IMG/VR virus record: IMGVR_UViG_3300007513_000250
Span: 1 to 20,234 of that record
Direction: 5' to 3' (one strand)
DNA length: 20,234 bases
From: a virus
In this document: positions 1,355 through 15,889 of the stretch, piece after piece
Numbering within the stretch: the first letter of the stretch is position 1
How the letters are laid out: the number at the start of each line of letters is the position of its first letter
The notes under the pieces: generated by a model
What the model was told of the DNA's origin: nothing
The model's database searches: none
The model's input: the letters and a program-made list of their open reading frames with translations, nothing else
Made by a program: the position numbers and the translations under genes

Positions 1355-1920
1355 TGTCCTTGTTGCTACTCTTGGGGTGCACCAACGCGCCTGTCATCGT
1401 AGTGCAAGAGACAACTACGCATGAAGAACGCCAACTCCATAAAGTATCAGAGACTATTGATGCTTCGTTCTTTAATCGTGGCCCACAAAGTCAAGGAGGA
1501 TGGCAGGGCACCCCCGACATCCGTGTGTGCACCACCGCACCCATTTCTCAGCGGAGAGTAGAAAAAGGACTTGACTTTTGGCGAGAACTAGGTTATAGTT
1601 TTGGTAGGATATATTATAATGATGTATCGAGACATTGTATTGAAGATATATTTTCATATAATACAATAATCATTGATTTGATTGACGGAACACACAGAGA
1701 GCCAGCGCTCGCCACCACAACGTCGTGGATTGACCGAGAAACCCGAGAGATTTTGAAAGCCAAAATTGCGCTTAAAAATACATGGGGCGAAGCCGACCGA
1801 ATTCTAGAACACGAGCTTGGGCATGCGCTAGGCTGGCTCGACTATAATCAAACTGGTCATATTATGCACCACGAATGGAGTCGAGGAGGACTAAATACCA
1901 TGGGAGTGGAAGTCCAATGA
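1351..1920 (+). CDS. Putative zinc metalloprotease lipoprotein (metzincin-like)
   Basis: I place the start at the ATG at 1351, which forms an ATGA overlap with the previous stop. An in-frame GTG lies at 1333. The 189-residue product opens with a short lipoprotein signal ending in LLLGC (Cys10). Residues 154-164 read HELGHALGWLD, matching the metzincin zinc motif HExxHxxGxxD, where Asp replaces the more usual third His. GHIM at 169-172 fits a Met-turn. It is therefore probably a small membrane-anchored zinc endopeptidase working in the periplasm or at the outer membrane. Its pairing with a thioredoxin-like lipoprotein suggests a joint envelope function such as lysis, entry or blocking of other phages, but that is inference. 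The stop overlaps the ATG of the first tagged gene. Confidence 0.8.
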   Translation: MMSLLLLLGCTNAPVIVVQETTTHEERQLHKVSETIDASFFNRGPQSQGGWQGTPDIRVCTTAPISQRRVEKGLDFWRELGYSFGRIYYNDVSRHCIEDIFSYNTIIIDLIDGTHREPALATTTSWIDRETREILKAKIALKNTWGEADRILEHELGHALGWLDYNQTGHIMHHEWSRGGLNTMGVEVQ

Positions 1921-2546
1921 AACTTTTAATGGAAAATTGGCGAGAGTTTTTGAATGAGACCTCACCTCCTTTTGAAGAGATTCAATCTATTATTGATCAA
2001 AATCCTTATTTAAAAGGCAAAGTTAGTGCAACTGAGGAGACAGTCTACGATATGGGGGATAAATATCTCCTGATGTCGGGGGTTTCCCACATAGCCGAGC
2101 GCCACCAAGATAAATGTTTTCCAGGCTCTCTTTTTCTCCAAGATGAGGAAGTGATAAAGAAAGCAATTCTCAATATTGTAGCCCAAATGCCCCCTGCGGA
2201 AGGAAAAGCGCTAGCTATGCCTTCGGGGATTTCTGGACTTGGAATGGAGAGATTAGTCAAAACAACACCTGAAGAAGTCGCCGGACTTGAAGATTACACG
2301 ATGAATGATGGTACAATTGTTAAAATTAAACGCGAAGGCAATAATCCCGGGCAAGTAACCGATAAATTAACAGTTATTGCTCCCTCTATTGGCAACATAG
2401 GTGGAAAGCCTCTACTTTCTCTAATAACTGCGTTTCCGGGTTTCATGGGAACTGGGCGCGGCGGTGACGGAGATATTGAGATCCTTGACCGCAGCGATTT
2501 TACAAAAAATGGATATTATTTTTTAATCCCAGAGGATTGTAAATGA
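1917..2546 (+). CDS. Tagged protein 1, possible RNase-like fold
   Basis: The start is the ATG at 1917, overlapping the preceding TGA. Upstream in-frame ATGs would only add residues that lie over the previous gene. The 209-residue product begins with the shared tag as MKLLMENWREFLNE. Its DNA differs from the other copies at several silent sites, so this is an older copy. The body contains SHIAERH (His58, His63) and, near the end, LLSLITAFPG (166-175). A His-x-x-x-x-His start followed by a late 'T-x-F/Y-P' strand recalls nuclease domains of the Barnase/EndoU/ColicinE5-D/RelE class seen in toxins and phages, but the match is weak. If the tag is a capsid-targeting peptide, this would be an injected effector. 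The gene itself is certain; its function is a guess. Confidence 0.85.
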   Translation: MKLLMENWREFLNETSPPFEEIQSIIDQNPYLKGKVSATEETVYDMGDKYLLMSGVSHIAERHQDKCFPGSLFLQDEEVIKKAILNIVAQMPPAEGKALAMPSGISGLGMERLVKTTPEEVAGLEDYTMNDGTIVKIKREGNNPGQVTDKLTVIAPSIGNIGGKPLLSLITAFPGFMGTGRGGDGDIEILDRSDFTKNGYYFLIPEDCK

Positions 2547-2568
2547 AACTCCTACTTGAAAATTGGCG
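2543..2568 (+). repeat. Tag DNA repeat, copy 1 of 5
   Basis: These 26 bases, from the ATG to the CG of the Arg9 codon, are identical to those at 2986, 3711, 4780 and 6261, including the three different Leu codons CTC-CTA-CTT. Identity begins at the start codon; the bases upstream differ between copies. This copy and the one at 3711 agree for 31 bases. Confidence 0.95.
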
Positions 2569-2989
2569 GAAGTATTTGACGGAGACAATCGGATTAGACG
2601 ATAATCCTGATTTATCACAAGACGGCTTTGAAACGGCAAAATTGCCTATTCCCTTAGAATTTAGATATGCAGAAACAGACGAGACCATTGAAACAAAAGA
2701 AGGTCCAGTAAACGCAACCGCCGGCGATGCTATCATGACCGGCACTGAAGGTGAACAATGGCCGATCCCCGCAGAGAAATTTGCAGAGACTTATGATGAT
2801 TTAGGCGACGGAACAGCCGCAAAGAAAAACATTCCTGTTTTTGCTAAAGAAATGGCTGAGCCCTTCCAAGTTAAAGTATCATGGTCAGATGATTTATTAC
2901 AAGGCGAAGCAGGAGACTATTTAGTTCAATACGGCGTGGGTGACTACGGCGTTGTGGGCAGAGAAATATTTGGAAAAACATATAAATGA
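2543..2989 (+). CDS. Tagged protein 2, PGDYG-like
   Basis: The 148-residue product starts with MKLLLENWRKYLTE, the shared tag ending in LTE. After a linker come two related strand patterns: AGDAIMTG with GEQWPIP (60-76), and AGDYLVQY followed by GVGDYGVVGREIF (123-143). Both resemble the small PGDYG-type domain, which often reads 'pGDy-v-t-GE-yp-F-Y' and has no known biochemical role. The protein is acidic and has no membrane segment. Its start overlaps the previous stop (ATGA) and GAGGA sits about 8 bases upstream, so translation is coupled. A head-internal cargo protein fits the tag. It could equally be a regulator or chaperone-like domain, and no catalytic residues can be named. Confidence 0.85.
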   Translation: MKLLLENWRKYLTETIGLDDNPDLSQDGFETAKLPIPLEFRYAETDETIETKEGPVNATAGDAIMTGTEGEQWPIPAEKFAETYDDLGDGTAAKKNIPVFAKEMAEPFQVKVSWSDDLLQGEAGDYLVQYGVGDYGVVGREIFGKTYK

Positions 2990-3011
2990 AACTCCTACTT
3001 GAAAATTGGCG
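2986..3011 (+). repeat. Tag DNA repeat, copy 2 of 5
   Basis: This copy is identical over 26 bases to the others and lies at the start codon of the ADP-ribosyltransferase-like gene. After the repeat the next codons read GAG TTC ATA AAT GAA, giving the ending E-F-I-N-E. The upstream bases show no similarity to those before other copies. Confidence 0.95.
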
Positions 3012-3714
3012 AGAGTTCATAAATGAAAACCAAGAAGGATCTGGGCTGCTTTACCACGCCACCTTGTCTGGTGAGAATAACAGCATTGTTCGTTCATTTA
3101 TTGATAACGGGATCGATCCAACGCGCGCTGGGGGCTTTGGTCAAGGTGGAGGCTTCTATCTTTGGACCGATATAAAGGATGCCCATCATTATATTAAAGG
3201 CTTGGTTTACGGCATGAAGGGCGCTTCGAAAGAGGAGGAGGTCGAAGGCAAGCCCATTATAGTAGTGGTTGACGAACCAGTTACTCCTCAAAACTTTGAT
3301 ATTGATTATGAACTGTATGCTAAGGGGCTTATTGGTTTTATCGAAGGTAACCTTGATTACTTTAAACAAAATGGTGAAGCCCTAGGTATTATAACAAAAA
3401 AGCTTGACAGTCATTTGAGTGTTGATAAAAAAGCACTTGGCCTCCAGGGCGGGAGGAAGACTGTTGCTCGATGGGATTCTCGCGCTTCGTGGGATAGTGA
3501 CATACATGGAGAAGACTACGGAATTGATATTGGCACTGGTGAACTGTTGGGAATGGTGGCATCTAAACTTCATGAATTGGACCCCACAAAATATGAAGAG
3601 TTTGAGAAGCAGGCTCTCCCGCCTGCCCGGGCTTTAAAATACAATGGCGAAACAAAGATTTGGCCATTACGCATTGAAGATGCCGAAGGCAATGTTCTGT
3701 GGAGCAGAGAATGA
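2986..3714 (+). CDS. Tagged protein 3, ADP-ribosyltransferase-like
   Basis: The 242-residue product starts with MKLLLENWREFINE (tag ending in INE) and continues directly into GSGLLYHATLSGE. LYHAT (22-26, His24) and GQGGGFYLWTD (52-62, Tyr58) with a following Ala-rich helix match the first two motifs of H-Y-x ADP-ribosyltransferases, as in DUF3990 and PARP-like folds ('lYHGt ... GkGfYlt.d...A'). Such enzymes move ADP-ribose from NAD+ onto proteins or nucleic acids. The third catalytic residue (Glu/Asp/Gln) is not obvious; several acidic residues lie in the 180-215 region. In T4 the ADP-ribosyltransferase Alt is packed in the head, carries a cleaved N-terminal targeting sequence and modifies host RNA polymerase after injection. 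This protein could play an equivalent role. It is translationally coupled at both ends. Confidence 0.8.
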   Translation: MKLLLENWREFINENQEGSGLLYHATLSGENNSIVRSFIDNGIDPTRAGGFGQGGGFYLWTDIKDAHHYIKGLVYGMKGASKEEEVEGKPIIVVVDEPVTPQNFDIDYELYAKGLIGFIEGNLDYFKQNGEALGIITKKLDSHLSVDKKALGLQGGRKTVARWDSRASWDSDIHGEDYGIDIGTGELLGMVASKLHELDPTKYEEFEKQALPPARALKYNGETKIWPLRIEDAEGNVLWSRE

Positions 3715-3736
3715 AACTCCTACTTGAAAATTGGCG
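3711..3736 (+). repeat. Tag DNA repeat, copy 3 of 5
   Basis: This is another identical 26-base copy at a start codon. It also shares the next five bases with copy 1 (GAAGT), so these two copies may be the most closely related pair. The protein bodies they introduce are unrelated. Confidence 0.95.
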
Positions 3737-4337
3737 GAAGTTTTTAAACGAGAAAAAATGGGAAGACTTTGATCATCCCAAGAATCAATGGGCCGATGTT
3801 TCACCCAGTGATATCAAAGCCGCACAACATCCGATTAATGTAGACTTATCTGATGAATTATATGATCTGATTGATGTTGCATATGCTGCCATAGGAGGCA
3901 ATTTTGATTTTGCTAACTCTGGCGATCTTCCTGGCGATCATGATCAGTGGGGAGCTATTGACATCGATGATGATCCGGAACCAGATGCACTTCGTGTTTC
4001 CAAAACAAAGCCGGCCGGCTCAAAGATGACTGTCGCAGGTCATGACGGGTCCAAGTCTGGAAAAGATGCCTATATTAGCAGGACTGCCGAATTATTATCA
4101 CAACCGGGACACTATGCGGAAATGTCCAAGAAAATTGCGGATATTATGATAAAATATTATGATATCCCGGCGGTCACCGACCCCGAAAAAGTACAGCAAG
4201 TATTGGGTCCTAATAAGTCTATCAAATGGCTCGGACCCCACCCAGAAGGAAAGCATCCTGGCATTGACGGCTGGTATACGAGAGACATCGGTCCCAATAA
4301 AGATATTCTCAAGATTATGCTTGGGAATCCAAAATGA
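3711..4337 (+). CDS. Tagged protein 4, conserved phage protein of unknown function
   Basis: The start is the ATG at 3711, overlapping the TGA of the previous gene. An in-frame ATG at 3699 would only add MEQR. The product has 208 residues and begins MKLLLENWRKFLNE. The body reads like a protein I associate with marine phages, with DLSDELYDLIDVAYAAIGG, an acidic DIDDDPEPDALRV segment, AGHDGSKSGKDAYI, and a C-terminal WLGPHPEGKHPGIDGWYTR followed by KIMLG. The mix of an early helix, central strands and a glycine-rich middle could be a GNAT-like or nucleotide-binding fold, but I see no decisive motif. No signal or membrane segment is present. The tag would place it inside the head. It is followed by an untagged hydrolase with a 4-base overlap. 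Confidence 0.85.
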   Translation: MKLLLENWRKFLNEKKWEDFDHPKNQWADVSPSDIKAAQHPINVDLSDELYDLIDVAYAAIGGNFDFANSGDLPGDHDQWGAIDIDDDPEPDALRVSKTKPAGSKMTVAGHDGSKSGKDAYISRTAELLSQPGHYAEMSKKIADIMIKYYDIPAVTDPEKVQQVLGPNKSIKWLGPHPEGKHPGIDGWYTRDIGPNKDILKIMLGNPK

Positions 4338-4783
4338 AAATTCTATTTTTACACGGACTTGAATCAACCCCAGGCGGAAGAAAGCCCACGACCATCTCAG
4401 ATGCTGGCTACGAAGTGATTGAGCCAATTCTTCCTGCGAACAGTTGGAACGATAGTATCAGCGCAGCCCAAGAGGCATATGATGAAGAACAACCAGATAT
4501 CATAGTTGGTTCGTCCCGGGGAGGAGCAGTTGCTATGGCCGCTAATCTTCCTGCACGTAAAATGATTTTAATTGCGCCGGCGTGGAAAAAGTATTGCCCT
4601 GGTTGTACTATTGCTCCCAATACAATTATTCTTCATTCGCCTGATGACGAGGTAATAGCCTTTGCAGACAGCAGACTATTGTCGAAGATGTTCGGCGCCG
4701 AACTAGTTATAGCGGGCGATGACCACCGCATGAATGATAGCGGAGCATTGGCTAAGATGATGCAGGCAATAGATAACTCATGA
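4334..4783 (+). CDS. Small alpha/beta hydrolase (YqiA-like esterase)
   Basis: The 149-residue product has the main marks of a compact alpha/beta hydrolase. LFLHGLES (4-11) gives the oxyanion-side HG motif. GSSRG (59-63) is the GxSxG elbow with Ser61 as nucleophile. HSPDDEV (101-107) holds the acid, Asp104 or Asp105. DDHRM (129-133) gives His131. Length and motifs resemble the YqiA/RBBP9-like 'UPF0227' group, which are small esterases of unknown natural substrate. It begins MKILFLHG and has no tag, unlike its neighbours, so it should stay in the cytoplasm or act in infected cells rather than be packed. ATGA overlaps at both ends show it is part of the same operon. Confidence 0.85.
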   Translation: MKILFLHGLESTPGGRKPTTISDAGYEVIEPILPANSWNDSISAAQEAYDEEQPDIIVGSSRGGAVAMAANLPARKMILIAPAWKKYCPGCTIAPNTIILHSPDDEVIAFADSRLLSKMFGAELVIAGDDHRMNDSGALAKMMQAIDNS

Positions 4784-4805
4784 AACTCCTACTTGAAAAT
4801 TGGCG
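4780..4805 (+). repeat. Tag DNA repeat, copy 4 of 5 (cut short)
   Basis: This copy is the same 26 bases as the other four, but it is followed by AGGGCTATAA rather than the codons of the tag's second half. The sequence therefore departs from the tag immediately after Arg9. This is the only copy not followed by an intact tag. Confidence 0.95.
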
Positions 4806-4815
4806 AGGGCTATAA
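4780..4815 (+). pseudogene. Truncated tag mini-ORF (MKLLLENWRGL, then stop)
   Basis: The ATG at 4780 overlaps the previous stop, exactly as at the true tagged genes. It opens MKLLLENWRGL and then reaches TAA at 4813-4815. The next codon is the ATG of the LamG gene in the same frame. A single stop codon therefore separates a partial tag, without the LxE end, from an otherwise in-frame protein. It may be a relic of a former tagged gene, a leader peptide that couples translation, or a readthrough site. The GAGGG within it is a well-placed ribosome site for the ATG at 4816. Confidence 0.7.
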
Positions 4816-6261
4816 ATGGCAATAACTCTAGAATATATGAGGCGTAAACAAAAACAACTGGAAAGAAAAATGCGGCGCGAAGCTGAATTGGAAGCTGAAA
4901 AAGAGGCAGAACGAGTTGCTGAGATAGAGGCCGAACTTCGCGAACAGGAAGAAATTGCTGCAAGGGCGCGCCTTCTTGTGGAACAACAGGAAGATAAGCG
5001 CCTTCATCAGAGGTATCTTAAAAGAAAGCAAAAAATAGCAGATCAAAAATGGGATAACCAGTTTGACGCTTTAATGACTCAGATAAAAAATCAAACCCAA
5101 AAGGATAATAAGCTTGAAGAAATAAGGTTTATAATCCAAAATCGCGAACCCTCTCTTCAACAGCTTGATTGGGATACGTGGTTATCCGTTCCTTTCAATC
5201 AAAGGCTCGCTGAATTGGATTTTGAGCGGGCGATGGAAATGTTTAAGCGCGATAATCTAATGTCTGCACGGCGTAAGAAAACGCGCGGGAAGTCTCCCAA
5301 GATCGATGCTGCTGTTAATTATGCATTATCATTCACTGGCAATGATGCAGTAGGCGCCCGCGCAGATTTGGTCGCAACATCGTTTACTCCTAATGATCCT
5401 ACAAATAAAGGCTTTTCAAGTTCTGACAGAAAACCACTTGCAGAATCAGGATTTACTATATCATTTTGGTGGAGACCAGACCAAAACTATCAGGATTCAT
5501 TTCCTATTGGCTGGAAAAGAGATACACATGCCAGATTTGACTTTGGAATAAGAAATGCATCAAAACCATGGTTTGGTTTAGGCAGTTCAGAATTAAAAGG
5601 CGTAACTTGGGAAACTATGTTTGATGATTCAGGTAATTCAGATTTAAAAAACACATTATTGGATAGTGGCGAAGGAACAGACCCCGGCTCTGGTAATCAT
5701 TTAATACTGGGTAAATGGTATCATCTTGTAGCAACATATGCAGGTACTGATAATCCTGATGGTGATGGTTACATGCTCCGTAAAATATATTTAAATGGAT
5801 ATCACATATATGGGGGATTTGGTGAAGCAAAGCAATCTGTGAACTGGACGAGCCACACTGGCGCTCAGATGGCCCGGGGTTTAGCTTTTGGTATGCGCGT
5901 AGTAGTAGCTTCAGGAACGGACTCAGAATCAGGACTAAGAAATGCTAAATATAACAACGGAAACGCATGTGGGCTTGATGAAATAGCTATTTATAGTGAA
6001 GCCAAAGATGCCGATTGGGTTACGAATGTATATAATGGTGGTGTGGATTACAATCATAAAGATTCGGGCGGCGATGGTCTTGTAGGATATTGGAGACTTA
6101 ATGAAGGTAATGGAAATACTGTTAAAGATTTATCAGGATATGGTTGGCACGGAACATTCACTAATGCTTCATACGGAACAAAGATTGATGCCGCTATAGC
6201 CGATCTACCACCTTCAGGAACACCAACTTGGATCAAGGTACCAACAGGATACGGTCAATAA
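4816..6261 (+). CDS. Coiled-coil and LamG-domain protein, probable virion adhesin or fibre
   Basis: The 481-residue product has two parts. Residues 1 to about 170 are highly charged, rich in Glu, Lys, Arg and Gln, and predicted coiled coil. Residues about 170-460 form a LamG/concanavalin A-like beta-sandwich, shown by YALSFTG near 175, FTISFWWRP, a GKWYHLVATYAG strand, KIYLNGYHIYGG, GLDEIAIYSE and GLVGYWRLNEGNGNTVKDLSG. In phages such domains bind glycans and occur on tail fibres, appendages and head decorations. The ATG at 4816 is preceded by GAGGG at a good distance, lying inside the truncated tag. The product itself has no tag, which fits a surface rather than an internal protein. Its TAA overlaps the next tagged start (TAATG). 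Confidence 0.85.
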   Translation: MAITLEYMRRKQKQLERKMRREAELEAEKEAERVAEIEAELREQEEIAARARLLVEQQEDKRLHQRYLKRKQKIADQKWDNQFDALMTQIKNQTQKDNKLEEIRFIIQNREPSLQQLDWDTWLSVPFNQRLAELDFERAMEMFKRDNLMSARRKKTRGKSPKIDAAVNYALSFTGNDAVGARADLVATSFTPNDPTNKGFSSSDRKPLAESGFTISFWWRPDQNYQDSFPIGWKRDTHARFDFGIRNASKPWFGLGSSELKGVTWETMFDDSGNSDLKNTLLDSGEGTDPGSGNHLILGKWYHLVATYAGTDNPDGDGYMLRKIYLNGYHIYGGFGEAKQSVNWTSHTGAQMARGLAFGMRVVVASGTDSESGLRNAKYNNGNACGLDEIAIYSEAKDADWVTNVYNGGVDYNHKDSGGDGLVGYWRLNEGNGNTVKDLSGYGWHGTFTNASYGTKIDAAIADLPPSGTPTWIKVPTGYGQ

Positions 6262-6286
6262 TGAAACTCCTACTTGAAAATTGGCG
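6261..6286 (+). repeat. Tag DNA repeat, copy 5 of 5
   Basis: This is the last identical 26-base copy, 1.5 kb from copy 4, at the start of the HAD gene. It is followed by ACGATTTTTAAATGAG, which completes the tag as R-F-L-N-E with codons different from those in the other copies. Confidence 0.95.
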
Positions 6287-6845
6287 ACGATTTTTAAATG
6301 AGGAGCAGGAGTACGAGATTTACTGTGACATGGATGGTGTGCTTGTAGACTTCGAATTAGGGGCCGTAGAGCACATCACAAGCGACTTAAAAAGCGGAAA
6401 GGCTTCCGAGCTAGAGGAAGAGCTTGGACGCGATTATATCACCGCTGAGGATATTAGGTCAAATAAGTCCGTTAGAAATTATATGTACAAAGAATTAGAA
6501 CATAACGCAGAATTTTGGGAGAACTTGCCTTGGATAGAAAATGGTCCCGAATTGTGGGCCGCAATTGCTCCATATAATCCGAATATATTAACAACCCCTA
6601 TGGGATATGGATCCGAAATTGGCAAACAAGCTTGGATTGATAAAAACTTAAGCCCCCTCCCCCAACAAGTTTTTATGTCGAGAGATAAATATCGCTGGGC
6701 CGATAAAAATAGTATTTTGATCGATGATTGGACAAAAAACACCATTCCTTGGGAAGAACACGGCGGCATAGCTATTTTACATCGAGATTCAGACATAGAA
6801 AAAACACTGTCAACACTGCAGGAACTCGGACTGCAAACTAATTAA
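6261..6845 (+). CDS. Tagged protein 5, HAD phosphatase (5'(3')-nucleotidase C-like)
   Basis: The start is the ATG at 6261, overlapping the previous TAA. The in-frame ATG at 6228 lies inside the LamG gene. The 194-residue product begins MKLLLENWRRFLNE and then YEIYCDMDGVLVDF. DMDG (23-26, Asp23 nucleophile and Asp25) is HAD motif I. LTT (110-112) fits motif II, Lys143 motif III, and ILIDDW (152-157, Asp155/Asp156) motif IV. Together with the small alpha insertion (35-85) this resembles the C-type 5'(3')-deoxyribonucleotidases common in phages. It would remove phosphate from nucleotides or a related substrate. A tag on a nucleotidase is unusual and suggests either delivery with the DNA or a different substrate. 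It closes the tagged cassette. Confidence 0.88.
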   Translation: MKLLLENWRRFLNEEQEYEIYCDMDGVLVDFELGAVEHITSDLKSGKASELEEELGRDYITAEDIRSNKSVRNYMYKELEHNAEFWENLPWIENGPELWAAIAPYNPNILTTPMGYGSEIGKQAWIDKNLSPLPQQVFMSRDKYRWADKNSILIDDWTKNTIPWEEHGGIAILHRDSDIEKTLSTLQELGLQTN

Positions 6846-12053: not shown

Positions 12054-12871
12054 AAGCTGAGCAAGAGCAAATCTTAAGAGAGAATATAAGACAGTTAATT
12101 GAAGTTGTCAAGCAAAAAAGAAGTACAGTCCAAGAAACACTGTTATTAGAAGAAGAACGCCTCCGCGGGATCGTTAGAGACTTAATTGATGTTGAACTCC
12201 AATCGCTCCGCGAGGATACTACCCCTGACAACGACCCGGTGCCCAATAAGTCTACTGGCATTAACGTTCTCGAAGATCTTTTGAAGAAAATTATTCCTGT
12301 CCTAGAGACTGATTATAAATTACTTACTACCGATGCCGAACAGCGCCAATCATTCCGCGCGCATGTTATTAATGCTGTAGTTGATGCCTTAACACCTGCT
12401 GAAGTTAATAATGAGGCTGGTGAGGAGGTTGCTGCAGCGGATGCACTAGAAGAAGAAGTAGATATAGCTATTGGCGATGAAGATAAGTTTATCGATATTC
12501 GAACTGATGCAGAAAAAAGTGCTGATGATGAAGAAGTCGAAGAGGACCCCCGCGATGGTTTTGGCGTCGCCGGCGAAGATGAAACTGGACGCAATGTAGC
12601 TTATAATGCCTTTAAAAAGATTCAAACTTCAATTATTGATTCTTATGAATTATTATCTAATCCTGAAGACCAAGAATTGTTTTATGATTATTTGATCGCC
12701 AATCTTAAATTGTATTTTGATAAATTCGAAGGCGAATTGGCGCCAGACGTAGAAGAGCCCACAAATCAAGCCTATGACGATGCTAAGAGCGAAGAAGGCG
12801 ATATGGGCGCGCCAGATGACACTGAGATGGATTTCGGTGGTGATGAAGAAGAGATAGAATTAGAATTATGA
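12050..12871 (+). CDS. Acidic coiled-coil protein, possibly scaffold or virion protein
   Basis: The 273-residue product is strongly acidic. Residues 1-60 are a charged coiled coil (EQILRENIRQLIEVVKQK and LRGIVRDLIDVELQSL), the middle holds Glu/Asp-rich runs (about 120-180), a helical domain follows (about 195-240), and the end is EEEIELEL. I associate an N-terminal 'LRENIRxLI' helix with marine T4-like phage structural proteins. The composition, acidic and helical with low-complexity tails, resembles scaffold or core proteins of T4-like heads, which direct capsid assembly and are digested later. No enzyme motif is visible. It overlaps both neighbours through ATGA junctions and precedes a tagged protein, which supports a head-related role. 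Confidence 0.75.
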   Translation: MKAEQEQILRENIRQLIEVVKQKRSTVQETLLLEEERLRGIVRDLIDVELQSLREDTTPDNDPVPNKSTGINVLEDLLKKIIPVLETDYKLLTTDAEQRQSFRAHVINAVVDALTPAEVNNEAGEEVAAADALEEEVDIAIGDEDKFIDIRTDAEKSADDEEVEEDPRDGFGVAGEDETGRNVAYNAFKKIQTSIIDSYELLSNPEDQELFYDYLIANLKLYFDKFEGELAPDVEEPTNQAYDDAKSEEGDMGAPDDTEMDFGGDEEEIELEL

Positions 12872-13632
12872 AAATTTTAATGGAGAATTGGCGCCAATTT
12901 ATAGAACATGGCGCGTCGACACCTGAGAATGGAAAAATATATCTTTTCGAAGATGAAAAGATCACAGAAGCATCTTTTAGCATAAGATTAAATCTATTAA
13001 CAGAATCCACCACAGAGATAGAAGGCTTTTTGCGAGAATGGGAGACGTCTGCCGATTATGTGTTAAGCAAGAATGTTCTTAATGAGGGCGTAATGGATTT
13101 AGTTTCTCAGGCGGCTGCAGTGTTGAAAACACTCGCAGAGAAATCTTGGGATACGGTCACAAGTGTCACTTCAAAAGTTTTAAATTTTATTGAGAAATTT
13201 AAAGAAAAACACCCCAAAATATATAGCGCCCTCAAATGGGCCTGTATAGCAATAATATGTATAGCGGCACTTTATCTAATAGCCAAAGCCACAGGAATGA
13301 CAGCTGTTGTCCAAGCTATGGAATCACTTGCTACATTCCAATGGCCCGATGTAGCAATTTCTGAATTGGTAAGAGATCTAACCAACCAACAGACAGTAGA
13401 TGCTCTTCGAAACCTACAAGACGCATTATTAAATCGAGCAGGAGACATAGGAGTAGATCTGGTGCAAAGTGATCATCAAATCCTTCAGGATCTAGGAGAT
13501 AAAATCTTAGATTCTATTCCATCGGAGCAGTCGGCTGAAGCAGTATCGGATTTCTGGGGTCAGGCGATGGAACGGTTACAGCAAGGCGCCCAGGCCGGCA
13601 CGGGACAAATTGAGACCTTCACTCCAAATTAG
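12868..13632 (+). CDS. Tag-related protein with a membrane segment and several LxE sites
   Basis: The 254-residue product starts MKILMENWRQFIEHGAS, clearly a relative of the shared tag but with silent and coding changes throughout. It has three matches to the T4 prohead protease pattern (L/I)xE before a small residue: ITE-A (32-35), LTE-S (44-47) and LNE-G (71-74). Residues about 122-139 form a hydrophobic segment (ALKWACIAIICIAALYLI), flanked by amphipathic helices and a Gln/Ala-rich end. A packed protein with a membrane segment could act at injection, for example in crossing the inner membrane, but this is inference. The ATG overlaps the previous TGA and the stop is 17 bases before the HTH gene. 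Confidence 0.8.
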   Translation: MKILMENWRQFIEHGASTPENGKIYLFEDEKITEASFSIRLNLLTESTTEIEGFLREWETSADYVLSKNVLNEGVMDLVSQAAAVLKTLAEKSWDTVTSVTSKVLNFIEKFKEKHPKIYSALKWACIAIICIAALYLIAKATGMTAVVQAMESLATFQWPDVAISELVRDLTNQQTVDALRNLQDALLNRAGDIGVDLVQSDHQILQDLGDKILDSIPSEQSAEAVSDFWGQAMERLQQGAQAGTGQIETFTPN

Positions 13633-14012: not shown

Positions 14013-14238
14013 ATATAACGGACACTATATCATGGGCGACTTGGTCGGCTCACACAAAACAGAAGCTGCCGCCATGAAAAAAGCAAAGAAAGAAATAAAA
14101 TTTAAATTTTCTGTGAGAGAAAAGAAAAAGAACGAGATACTTATTTGGCTTGATGGTGAAAACCACGAACCACTAGGAGTTATCACACACGAATTAAAGG
14201 GGACGAAACGGCCTCGACAGGGTAAGGAGAAAGGATAG
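13996..14238 (+). CDS. DUF2188-like small protein overlapping the tmRNA
   Basis: The 80-residue product begins MWKVYKYNGHYIMGDLVGSH and continues with KTEAAAMKKAKKE, a pattern like the small DUF2188-type fold ('wxV...g.w.v...ga..a....eA...Ak'). It then has EILIWLDGENHEPLGVI. The start overlaps the HTH gene by 17 bases. The last 13 codons plus stop (from 14199) lie inside the 5' end of the tmRNA, so the tail GTKRPRQGKEKG is dictated by RNA sequence rather than by the protein family. The core up to about residue 67 looks genuine. The protein's role is unknown. Co-transcription with the tmRNA would require processing to release the tmRNA 5' end. Confidence 0.7.
   Translation: MWKVYKYNGHYIMGDLVGSHKTEAAAMKKAKKEIKFKFSVREKKKNEILIWLDGENHEPLGVITHELKGTKRPRQGKEKG
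14008..14015 (+). promoter_or_regulatory. Possible late promoter element TATAAATA
   Basis: TATAAATA is the T4 late-promoter consensus (recognised by gp55-type sigma) and is also reported for cyanophage late genes. This copy lies about 190 bases upstream of the tmRNA, at the junction of two genes. In AT-rich DNA an 8-mer can occur by chance, and another copy at 13808 lies within the HTH gene, so this is tentative. Confidence 0.25.
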
Positions 14239-14620
14239 TGCAAGTAGTCAAACGTACCAGCAGACTTTAAATGCAGATACAAAACATAATTGCTAATAAT
14301 AATAACAATTTCGAATCTGTCCGCTTAGCGGCTTAATCGGGTGGTTACCTAAAGCCATCAATCCAATTTAGGTATTTATCGCAACAGGATGGTAAGCGAT
14401 ATCTTATAGCCATCTATCTTTTTGTTAGTTTCTGATAGCAAACTGACGCATCGATTGGAAAGGGTGAGGGTTTAGCTTGTCAGTCGATTAATCACCCCGC
14501 TTTTGTTGATTTTCACATAGCGGATGCCGGCCGTCAGACCGGTAAAAATCAACTAAACTTGTGAATGACTTGAATTTTAATATGCTTTGGACGCGGGTTC
14601 GACTCCCGCCGTCTCCACCA
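14199..14620 (+). ncRNA. ssrA: tmRNA (transfer-messenger RNA)
   Basis: The ends are diagnostic. GGGGACG at 14199-14205 pairs with CGTCTCC before an encoded ACCA end (14610-14620), keeping the G3-U wobble that alanyl-tRNA synthetase recognises. CTCGACAGGG near 14213 matches the conserved D-loop region of tmRNA, and GCGGG-TTCGACT-CCCGC near 14593-14609 is the T arm. Inside is a tag frame at 14292-14336, GCT to TAA, encoding ANNNNNFESVRLAA with the hydrophobic AA end that ClpXP-type proteases recognise. The six bases ATAATT before the GCT keep the key -5 U and -4 A. Helical parts for the pseudoknot domain are visible, for example GTTGATTTT at 14505 with AAAATCAAC at 14545. At 422 nt it is a one-piece tmRNA that rescues stalled ribosomes and tags the nascent protein. 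Confidence 0.95.
14292..14336 (+). other. tmRNA tag-peptide reading frame (ANNNNNFESVRLAA)
   Basis: The resume codon is taken as GCT at 14292. The same frame has a TAA just before the upstream ATG at 14271, so the tag cannot begin before that point. The end LAA-stop is typical; the Asn5 run and FESVR middle differ from the tags I remember (AANDENYALAA in E. coli, counting its first Ala). Confidence 0.8.
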
Positions 14621-14632
14621 TCTTACTAAGGA

Positions 14633-15331
14633 ATGCGTATATATCAAAATAAAACTAAGACAGCCATATTGCTTATTAATTTAAAGGCGGCTTCTACATC
14701 TGCTGCGACACATTGCCGAAAAGGCGAAATTTCACAGGTTACGAATTCATCAACAGAATATCGTAAAGTTGCAAGAGATCCACTATTATATAAACTAATG
14801 ATAGTGCGAGAGCCCTACCAACGAATTGAAAGTTTTTATAAAAGTCGTTTTTATGTGCCTTACTCTCAAGATGAATGGCAAAAGCTCTTAAACACAATCA
14901 CAGACTTAGAAATATATCAATGCCCTCTAACAGGCAAGTTTAAAGAGAGAAAATCCGGAAATAAATTACCGTTTTGGGTACGTATGGTAAATCATATATG
15001 TGAATATTTTGATAAAGAAGAATATTTTGCTGAAAAAATAGATTTTGAACAGTTTGTTATAAATGGGGTAGGAAAGGGATATCACGGACTTGGGCATTTA
15101 TATGAACAAACCCGACTCTTGGAGCGCTCCCAAATTAACGCCGCGGCGGTAAATGAAATTATAAAACTTGAAAATCCGGATTTTACAAACTTAAACTCTT
15201 ATTTTAATATAAATTTTGCTCATGAGAATAAAAGCTCGATAGACACGACCTTAATTTGGACGTCCGAAATGAGGCAAATAGCTTATGAAAAATACAAAAA
15301 AGATTTCGAAGAATTTAAATATACAAGATAA
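14633..15331 (+). CDS. Sulfotransferase-like protein
   Basis: The 232-residue product begins with a strand and loop AILLINLKAASTSA (11-24), in which LKAASTS resembles the 5'-phosphosulfate-binding loop of sulfotransferases ('pKxaStSl'). MIVREPYQRIESFYKSRF (56-73) matches the 3'-phosphate-binding element ('vRdPyeRliSaY', Arg59 and Ser67). The rest is helical and fits the carbohydrate sulfotransferase group (Sulfotransfer_2-like). It would use PAPS to sulfate a sugar or lipid, perhaps on the host surface. AAGGA lies almost against the ATG, so initiation may be weak. The gene starts 12 bases after the tmRNA, and its last 47 bases also encode the start of the next small peptide in another frame. 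Some neighbouring residues typical of the family are missing, so activity is uncertain. Confidence 0.7.
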   Translation: MRIYQNKTKTAILLINLKAASTSAATHCRKGEISQVTNSSTEYRKVARDPLLYKLMIVREPYQRIESFYKSRFYVPYSQDEWQKLLNTITDLEIYQCPLTGKFKERKSGNKLPFWVRMVNHICEYFDKEEYFAEKIDFEQFVINGVGKGYHGLGHLYEQTRLLERSQINAAAVNEIIKLENPDFTNLNSYFNINFAHENKSSIDTTLIWTSEMRQIAYEKYKKDFEEFKYTR

Positions 15332-15452
15332 TGAATTAACAGACGAACAATTAGAAATAGTATGTGGCGGAATGAGAAAAGAAACATTCGACATATACGC
15401 AACAGATTTAATAAATAAAAATTTATTCTACAAACAAAAGGAAAAACAATGA
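15285..15452 (+). CDS. Small peptide with a double-glycine leader motif
   Basis: This 55-residue frame starts at ATG 15285 within the end of the sulfotransferase gene. GAGG lies 10 bases before the ATG. It ends TGA at 15452 in an ATGA overlap with the FKBP gene. Residues 17-29 read ELTDEQLEIVCGG, a close match to the leader consensus of double-glycine peptides (bacteriocin and Nif11-type, 'LsdeELexVsGG'). This predicts cleavage after Gly29 by a C39-peptidase transporter and a 26-residue core, MRKETFDIYATDLINKNLFY followed by KQKEKQ. The core has no cysteine and looks like a basic amphipathic helix. No exporter is in the window, so a host transporter would be needed. It may also be a non-exported relative. 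Confidence 0.65.
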   Translation: MKNTKKISKNLNIQDNELTDEQLEIVCGGMRKETFDIYATDLINKNLFYKQKEKQ

Positions 15453-15889
15453 AAACAGTAGAAGTTGGAAACAACGTAAAAGTCCATTACGTAGGAACCC
15501 TTACAGATGGCACAGAATTTGATAGCTCGCATAAGCGAGGCGAGGCACTTCTTGTAGAAGTGGGCTCTCCTGGGCTATTAAAAGCTTTTGACGAAGCAAT
15601 CGTGGGAATGACCGAGGGCGAAACAAAAGAGATCGTACTCTCCGCTGAGGAAGGATATGGTCCCCGAAACCCCGAAGCAATGCAAACGGTTCCCAAGGAA
15701 GCCTTTGGCCCTGAATTTGAATTTGAAGAAGGTCAGACTGTCCAAGGCAATGGCCCGTATGGACCTTTTTTAGCTACAATCAAGCAACTGGAAGAAACTC
15801 AAGTGGTATTGGATATGAACCATCCTCTTGCTGGTGAAACACTCAAATTTCAAATTGAAATGTTAGAAATTATTACGGAAGGAGAGTAA
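15449..15889 (+). CDS. FKBP-type peptidyl-prolyl isomerase (SlyD/FkpB-like)
   Basis: The 146-residue product opens VKVHYVGTLTDGTEFDSS (10-27), the first strands of an FKBP domain. It continues with GLLKAFDEAIVGMTEGETKEIVL, then an inserted flap domain (about 68-118, PEEGYGPRNPEA-type segment and TVPKEAFGP). It closes with LDMNHPLAGETLKFQIEMLEI (shown in two parts: LDMNHPLAGE and TLKFQIEMLEI), the strand typical of SlyD/FkpB. It lacks SlyD's metal-binding His-rich tail. It would speed proline isomerisation and chaperone folding, possibly of phage proteins; FKBP genes occur in some marine phages. It starts in an ATGA overlap with the leader-peptide gene. Confidence 0.9.
   Translation: MKTVEVGNNVKVHYVGTLTDGTEFDSSHKRGEALLVEVGSPGLLKAFDEAIVGMTEGETKEIVLSAEEGYGPRNPEAMQTVPKEAFGPEFEFEEGQTVQGNGPYGPFLATIKQLEETQVVLDMNHPLAGETLKFQIEMLEIITEGE

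What the first reader, a model, noticed from the sequence alone, without database searches (positions are those of the whole stretch)
2986..3714. Tagged ADP-ribosyltransferase-like protein as an analogue of T4 Alt
LYHAT and GGGFYLW motifs of H-Y-x ADP-ribosyltransferases follow straight after the tag. In T4, Alt is a head-packed ADP-ribosyltransferase injected to modify host RNA polymerase and other proteins. A different ART fold carrying the same kind of head address would be convergent use of the same strategy.
Basis: partly seen in the sequence, partly recalled or inferred. Interest (0 to 1): 0.68.

Follow-up and report, generated by a model that had tools for sequence, protein, structure and literature searches.

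The report
Head-addressed ART-like protein of marine phage
A marine phage related to T4 makes a probable ADP-ribosyltransferase (an enzyme that tags other proteins using NAD) carrying a short front-end address that should load it into the virus head for injection into the host, and the same address sits on dozens of unrelated enzymes in other marine phages.

Summary
ORF 2986-3714 (242 aa) starts with MKLLLENWREFINE, then LYHAT (aa 22-26) and GGGFYLW (54-60). The tag sits on five other window genes. The same virus (203-kb record, 100% identical over the overlap) encodes a T4-type prohead protease and gp23. In 171 distinct tagged ORFs from viral contigs, 82% have E at residue 14 and 95% have L/I/V/M at 12, although the search fixed only codons 1-9. 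This is the L/I-x-E site of T4 gp21. Tagged bodies form about 91 unrelated clusters: kinases, GNATs, NUDIX, zeta-toxin and several further ART-like families. So the "head address" reading is well supported by sequence, with no experiment behind it. The ART reading is favoured but unproven. Five homologues (71-22% identity, three of them untagged archaeal MAG proteins) keep Y58 in all and H24 in all but one. The 3-sequence AF2 model is weak (pLDDT 61), yet 47 of its top 50 PDB matches are ART domains, none significant (best E 0.17). Pfam finds nothing, and no third catalytic residue is identified. It is not an Alt family member (Alt is R-S-E); it resembles Alt in delivery only. The substrate is unknown. 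Most notable: a modular, recombining address that works as a split-up version of "polyvalent" injected proteins.

The parts
2986..3027 (+). N-terminal tag MKLLLENWREFINE (capsid-targeting-sequence-like), predicted prohead-protease site I-N-E|N after residue 14
   Evidence: sequence; six tag starts in window; L/I-x-E at 12-14 in most of 171 tagged ORFs; T4 rule L/I-X-E from PMC9026906
3028..3711 (+). body, residues 15-242: probable H-Y-type ART domain
   Evidence: homolog conservation, AF2 plus Foldseek, hhalign
3049..3063 (+). LYHAT, predicted beta-1 with H24
   Evidence: H24 kept in 5 of 6 family members; strand 22-27 in model
3145..3165 (+). GGGFYLW, predicted beta-2 with Y58
   Evidence: F57-Y58 invariant in 6 of 6; strand 58-60 in model
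3295..3312 (+). FDIDYE, invariant D105/Y108/E109; candidate location of an acidic active-site residue
   Evidence: invariant in 6 of 6; role inferred only
3637..3681 (+). KYNGETKIWPLRIED, conserved C-terminal strands
   Evidence: Y219, G221, P227 invariant; strands 217-219 and 227-232 in model
1917..2546 (+). tagged ORF (MKLLMENWREFLNE), function unknown
2543..2989 (+). tagged ORF, PGDYG domain (PF14083, E 2e-18)
3711..4337 (+). tagged ORF (MKLLLENWRKFLNE), unknown
4780..4815 (+). tag-only remnant: MKLLLENWRGL then stop, directly before the next ORF
6261..6845 (+). tagged 5'-3' deoxyribonucleotidase-like (HAD), PHROG 2643
   Evidence: tag
12868..13632 (+). ORF with tag-like start MKILMENWRQFIEHG

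Best explanation
The ORF encodes an internal-head effector of a marine T4-type phage. Step 1 (inferred from sequence): the first 14 residues bind the scaffolding core, as T4 capsid-targeting sequences do. Step 2 (inferred): the T4-type prohead protease cuts after I-N-E14 and leaves a 228-residue mature protein in the head. Step 3 (inferred from T4): it is ejected into the host with the DNA. Step 4 (inferred, less certain): the body is an ADP-ribosyltransferase of the H-Y (PARP/DUF3990-like) clade that uses NAD+ to modify a host macromolecule at the start of infection. The target is unknown. Rough probabilities: head address 0.85; ART fold 0.75; active transferase 0.5. The confidence given is for head-packaged protein with an ART-type body; activity is rated separately.
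For: Tag: six tag starts in the window. Among 171 distinct tagged ORFs, 82% have E14 and 95% L/I/V/M12, at positions the search did not fix. The same genome has PF03420 protease (E 3e-31) and gp23 (E 3e-60). The gp23 N-terminal region contains LL[RK]E followed by A, N or Q in the phages examined. A tag-like ORF (MKLLLEHWNRYLQE) lies just upstream of the protease in G001, and tag-like ORFs flank it in G027. T4 rules from PMC9026906. ART: H24/Y58 conserved down to 23-29% identity, in archaeal untagged homologs too. The AF2 strand/helix order fits beta1(H)-alpha-beta2(Y)-alpha-beta3. 47 of the top 50 Foldseek PDB hits are PARP, tankyrase or PltA ART domains. DUF3990 ranks first of 191 profile comparisons with H and Y in register. 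Purifying selection. Other tagged proteins also look like ARTs.
Against: No experiment and no virion proteome. The prohead protease is common in large contigs anyway (3 of 4 untagged control contigs over 150 kb), so its presence is necessary but not discriminating. Pfam and PHROGs give no match. Foldseek E is never below 0.17 and TM-scores are low, because the model is weak. hhalign probability is only 15%. The position before the A-L-K-Y-N-G segment is R or S in the phage proteins but E in one archaeal homolog, so the classical catalytic Glu may be missing. H24 is Y in the most distant homolog.
Confidence: 0.62

Rival explanations
1. It is head-packaged by the tag but the body is a catalytically dead or non-ART domain, for example a binding protein that blocks a defence system the way T4 internal proteins block GmrSD.
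For: No third catalytic residue could be assigned; R/S stands where one archaeal homolog has E; no significant fold hit; T4 IPs are inhibitors rather than enzymes (PMC12373910).
Against: Strong conservation of the H and Y motif segments and the ART-dominated structure search.
Confidence: 0.25
2. The tag is not a head address but another shared N-terminal element, for example a host-complex docking peptide or a translational leader spread by recombination between coupled genes.
For: The tag DNA is more alike within a phage (within-contig identity 0.92 against 0.86 between contigs), and the genes overlap by 4 bp, which could favour a leader role.
Against: Protein-level conservation continues beyond codons 1-9 into an L/I-x-E site; bodies are extremely diverse; tag-like ORFs lie next to the prohead protease gene.
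Confidence: 0.1
3. The ART is made after infection as an ordinary phage moron or toxin component (like T4 ModA/ModB, or the counterpart of a cellular toxin) and is not packaged.
For: Untagged homologs exist in archaeal MAGs, so the domain has a life outside phage heads.
Against: All three phage versions carry the tag, one within a run of consecutive tagged genes.
Confidence: 0.08

Closest known systems
T4 internal head proteins IPI-IPIII and Alt with capsid-targeting sequences cut by gp21
   Same: Short N-terminal address shared by unrelated proteins, ending in L/I-x-E, in a phage with a T4-type prohead protease and gp23
   Different: The tag here is 14 aa (MKLLxENWRxYLxE) and occurs on far more cargo families; processing not shown experimentally
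T4 Alt (Alt/VIP2, R-S-E ART)
   Same: Proposed head-packaged, injected ART
   Different: No R-S-E motif and no PF03496 match in G001; H-Y class; about 228 aa mature against 68 kDa for Alt
Polyvalent-protein ARTs (Tox-ART-HYD2, PMC5512222)
   Same: H-Y-type ART motifs in a virion-delivered protein; the accompanying domain types overlap (kinase, GNAT, NTase, zincin-like, zeta toxin)
   Different: Single-domain tagged protein instead of a large multidomain polyprotein; D in strand 5 not established
DUF3990 (PF13151)
   Same: YHG...G.GFY.T motifs align in register; best profile match of 191 tested
   Different: hhalign probability only 15%; no hmmscan match
PARP/tankyrase catalytic domains
   Same: 47 of the top 50 PDB structure hits are ART domains, mostly PARPs
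   Different: Best E 0.17; TM-score about 0.2; equivalent of the catalytic Glu not found

Membership tests
T4-type internal head proteins (CTS-bearing) | 10-19 residue N-terminal propeptide shared by otherwise unrelated proteins | tested here: met
   14-residue tag on about 91 unrelated body clusters
T4-type internal head proteins (CTS-bearing) | prohead-protease site L/I-x-E at the end of the propeptide | tested here: met
   I12-N13-E14 here; E14 in 82% and L/I/V/M12 in 95% of 171 tagged ORFs; rule from PMC9026906
T4-type internal head proteins (CTS-bearing) | T4-type prohead protease and gp23 in the same genome | tested here: met
   (G001, identical to the window over the overlap); control: 3 of 4 untagged large contigs also have the protease
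T4-type internal head proteins (CTS-bearing) | present and cleaved in virions, injected | not testable with these tools
   needs virion proteomics
ART superfamily, H-Y clade | His in strand 1 and Tyr in strand 2 | tested here: met
   H24 in 5 of 6 and Y58 in 6 of 6 homologs; both in predicted strands of a weak model
ART superfamily, H-Y clade | third catalytic residue (E/D/Q) in strand 5 | tested here: inconclusive
   D105/E109 invariant but not placed in strand 5; R/S near KYNG in phage copies, E in one archaeal copy
ART superfamily, H-Y clade | ART fold | tested here: inconclusive
   AF2 pLDDT 61, pTM 0.54; Foldseek top hits are ARTs but best E 0.17
ART superfamily, H-Y clade | match to a curated ART family model | tested here: not met
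   no Pfam or PHROG ART family
ART superfamily, H-Y clade | NAD+-dependent transferase activity | not testable with these tools
   needs an assay
T4 Alt family (R-S-E) | R...S-T-S...ExE motif / PF03496 | tested here: not met
   absent from the sequence; no PF03496 match in G001
Polyvalent-protein ARTs | ART fused with other domains in one large virion protein | tested here: not met
   single-domain 242-aa protein
DUF3990 | hmmscan match to PF13151 | tested here: not met
   hhalign ranks it first but at probability 15%

The most novel reading that the evidence does not exclude
Marine T4-type phages use one recombinable 14-residue address (MKLLxENWRxYLxE) as a plug-in tag. It loads dozens of different single-domain effectors (ARTs of several clades, kinases, GNATs, NUDIX, zeta-toxin, nucleotidyltransferases, 2H-like phosphoesterases) into the head. 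This would be a split-up, individually addressed counterpart of polyvalent proteins, so that a phage's injected arsenal can be read directly from its genome.
Probability: 0.7. Interest if true: 0.76.

Novelty: new variant of a known kind. Interest (0 to 1): 0.6.

Why it matters
T4 has four well-known internal proteins (Alt and IPI-IPIII), and the injected proteins of most other phages are unknown. A conserved tag that marks cargo by sequence would let anyone list the injected effectors of uncultured marine phages and test them one by one. It would also suggest that head-packaged ADP-ribosyltransferases arose repeatedly from different ART clades behind the same address.

Tried and rejected
Rejected: L151 hit (53% over 27 aa) is a tail-fibre coincidence. 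First AF2 model with two sequences (pLDDT 45) was useless, and its fold search was meaningless. PDB sequence searches with the protein, the profile and the archaeal homolog gave nothing. No relatives in INPHARED phages or PLSDB plasmids. The tag alone finds no convincing cultured phage. T4 late promoter TATAAATA is not concentrated near the tagged genes (13 + and 16 - sites in 203 kb; two + sites in the window, none near the ART): uninformative. Tagged contigs over 150 kb all have the PF03420 protease (8 of 8), but 3 of 4 untagged controls do too, so I do not count this as discriminating. E222 as catalytic Glu was considered and dropped, because it is K in the 42% homolog. Several tagged ART-like families (L205, L226, L228, L201, L105, L114) lack Pfam support and are called ART-like from motifs only.

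Full report
WHAT IS THERE. ORF 2986-3714 (+) encodes 242 aa: MKLLLENWREFINE, then GLLYHAT (H24) and GFGQGGGFYLW (Y58). The start overlaps the upstream stop (ATGA). In the window the exact 24-nt start ATGAAACTCCTACTTGAAAATTGG occurs at 2543, 2986, 3711, 4780 and 6261, with a variant at 1917 and a weaker one at 12868. The copy at 4780 is a tag followed by a stop (MKLLLENWRGL*), just before another ORF: a tag remnant. The combined ART-like motif matches none of 200,000 shuffles of the protein.

WHOSE GENOME. The window is a 20-kb viral record. It is 100% identical over the 11.8-kb overlap fetched to a 203-kb record, G001 = IMGVR_UViG_3300013114_000447. G001 carries a T4-type prohead protease (PF03420, E 3e-31) and a T4-type major capsid protein (PF07068, E 3e-60). 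Between the gp20-like ORF (named from position) and the protease lies an ORF that starts MKLLLEHWNRYLQE. In a second phage, G027, tag-like ORFs flank the protease on both sides; the six other phages examined do not show this. The N-terminal part of gp23, where it was read (G001 and six others), contains LL[RK]E followed by A, N or Q, consistent with L-x-E specificity.

THE TAG IS A HEAD ADDRESS BY ALL SEQUENCE CRITERIA TESTED. T4 internal proteins carry 10-19-residue propeptides that target the core and are cut by gp21 after L/I-X-E (PMC9026906; PMC3012670). It gave 171 distinct ORFs over 15 aa, of which 140 have E at residue 14, 162 have L/I/V/M at 12 and 165 an aromatic or H at 11, none of which was fixed by the search. 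Bodies fall into about 91 clusters (BLAST 1e-3). Pfam names a minority: AAA/zeta toxin, NUDIX, protein kinase, GNAT, RNase T, HAD, nucleotidyltransferase, PGDYG. Tag DNA is more alike within a contig than between contigs (0.92 against 0.86; 26% against 8% identical pairs), which suggests spread by duplication or gene conversion within a phage. All tagged contigs over 150 kb (8 of 8) have the protease. A small control of untagged contigs over 150 kb has it in 3 of 4, so that point is a required condition met rather than a proof.

THE BODY. Relatives are rare: L009 (71% identity, tagged), L227 (42%, tagged, in a run of seven consecutive ORFs that begin MKLLLENW), and untagged proteins of Woesearchaeota MAGs found through the GFGQGxGFY motif (L250) and a phylum search (L271, L272). 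Across six members Y23, G42, F57, Y58, A66, D105, Y108, E109, Y219, G221 and P227 are invariant and H24 is kept in five. Purifying selection: dN 0.23, dS about 1.5. AF2 with three sequences: pLDDT 60.6, pTM 0.54, order beta1 (22-27, H24) - alpha - beta2 (58-60, Y58) - alpha - beta3 (90-95) ... beta (217-219, 227-232, 237-240). Foldseek against PDB: no hit below E 0.17, but 47 of the 50 hits shown are ART domains, mostly PARPs and tankyrases. These are related to each other, so they count as one line of evidence. In the viral library, ART-PolyVal and PARP proteins appear among weak hits. Profile comparison: DUF3990 scores best of 191 targets and nulls, with both motifs in register, but at 15% probability. 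I therefore put ART fold at about 0.75 and intact catalysis at about 0.5: the third active-site residue is not identified, and phage copies have R/S where one archaeal copy has E near KYxG.

OTHER TAGGED ART-LIKE PROTEINS. L042 (R-S-E type: YRGMG, SSISSWTAS, EEEFIL; weak PF03496, E 0.057); L205/L214 (LYHAS...VVYLALDPEVAFSYAE...VEYHG); L226, L228, L105, L114; L201 and L009:732-1457 (sister family). These rest on motifs only. If right, several ART clades were put behind one address independently.

COMPARISON WITH WHAT IS KNOWN. Head-packaged ARTs are known: T4 Alt (R-S-E) and H-Y-D ARTs of polyvalent proteins (PMC5512222); a survey judged about 44% of phage ARTs to be in contexts suggestive of head packaging (PMC9503650). 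CTS-marked T4 internal proteins that block defences are known (PMC12373910). The tag peptide itself was not found in the held literature, which is limited to open-licence papers. New here: a long, well conserved and evidently mobile address shared by very many effectors in marine T4-type phages, with this H-Y ART-like protein as one cargo. It works like Alt in delivery; it is not a member of the Alt family.

VERDICT. Observation confirmed. Interpretation partly supported: the head-address half is strong in silico; the ART half is favoured; the Alt-like host target is untested.

Noticed in passing
window 4780-4815: Orphan tag: MKLLLENWRGL then stop, immediately before the ORF at 4816; looks like a remnant of tag or cargo exchange.
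   Followed up: partly
window 14199-14620: Phage-encoded tmRNA gene with tag ANNNNNFESVRLAA.
   Followed up: no
window 15285-15452: 55-aa ORF with a double-glycine-type leader (ELTDEQLEIVCGG), like a bacteriocin or microcin precursor, beside an FKBP-like ORF (15449-15889).
   Followed up: no
G001 106766, 113207, 117224 (L015, L016) and L009:1664: A second repeated N-terminal motif, MKxTKxxLxxIIxEE, on other ORFs; it also ends in I-x-E and may be a second head address.
   Followed up: no
L227:27-4602: Seven consecutive ORFs that begin MKLLLENW, most with overlapping starts: GNAT, unknown, ART-like, ParB-like, unknown, HExxH protease-like and others.
   Followed up: partly
L286 (Flavobacterium phage immuto, MW353176) 2951, 16776, 17777: A cultured T4-like phage with a different repeated N-terminus (M.NFDLKKFLVENKLTxNSxLL) just upstream of its terminase and head genes; a possible laboratory test system for such addresses.
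   Followed up: partly
L250:2191-2895, L271:1447-2217: Untagged homologs of the body in Woesearchaeota MAG contigs; whether these are archaeal, viral or binning errors was not settled.
   Followed up: partly
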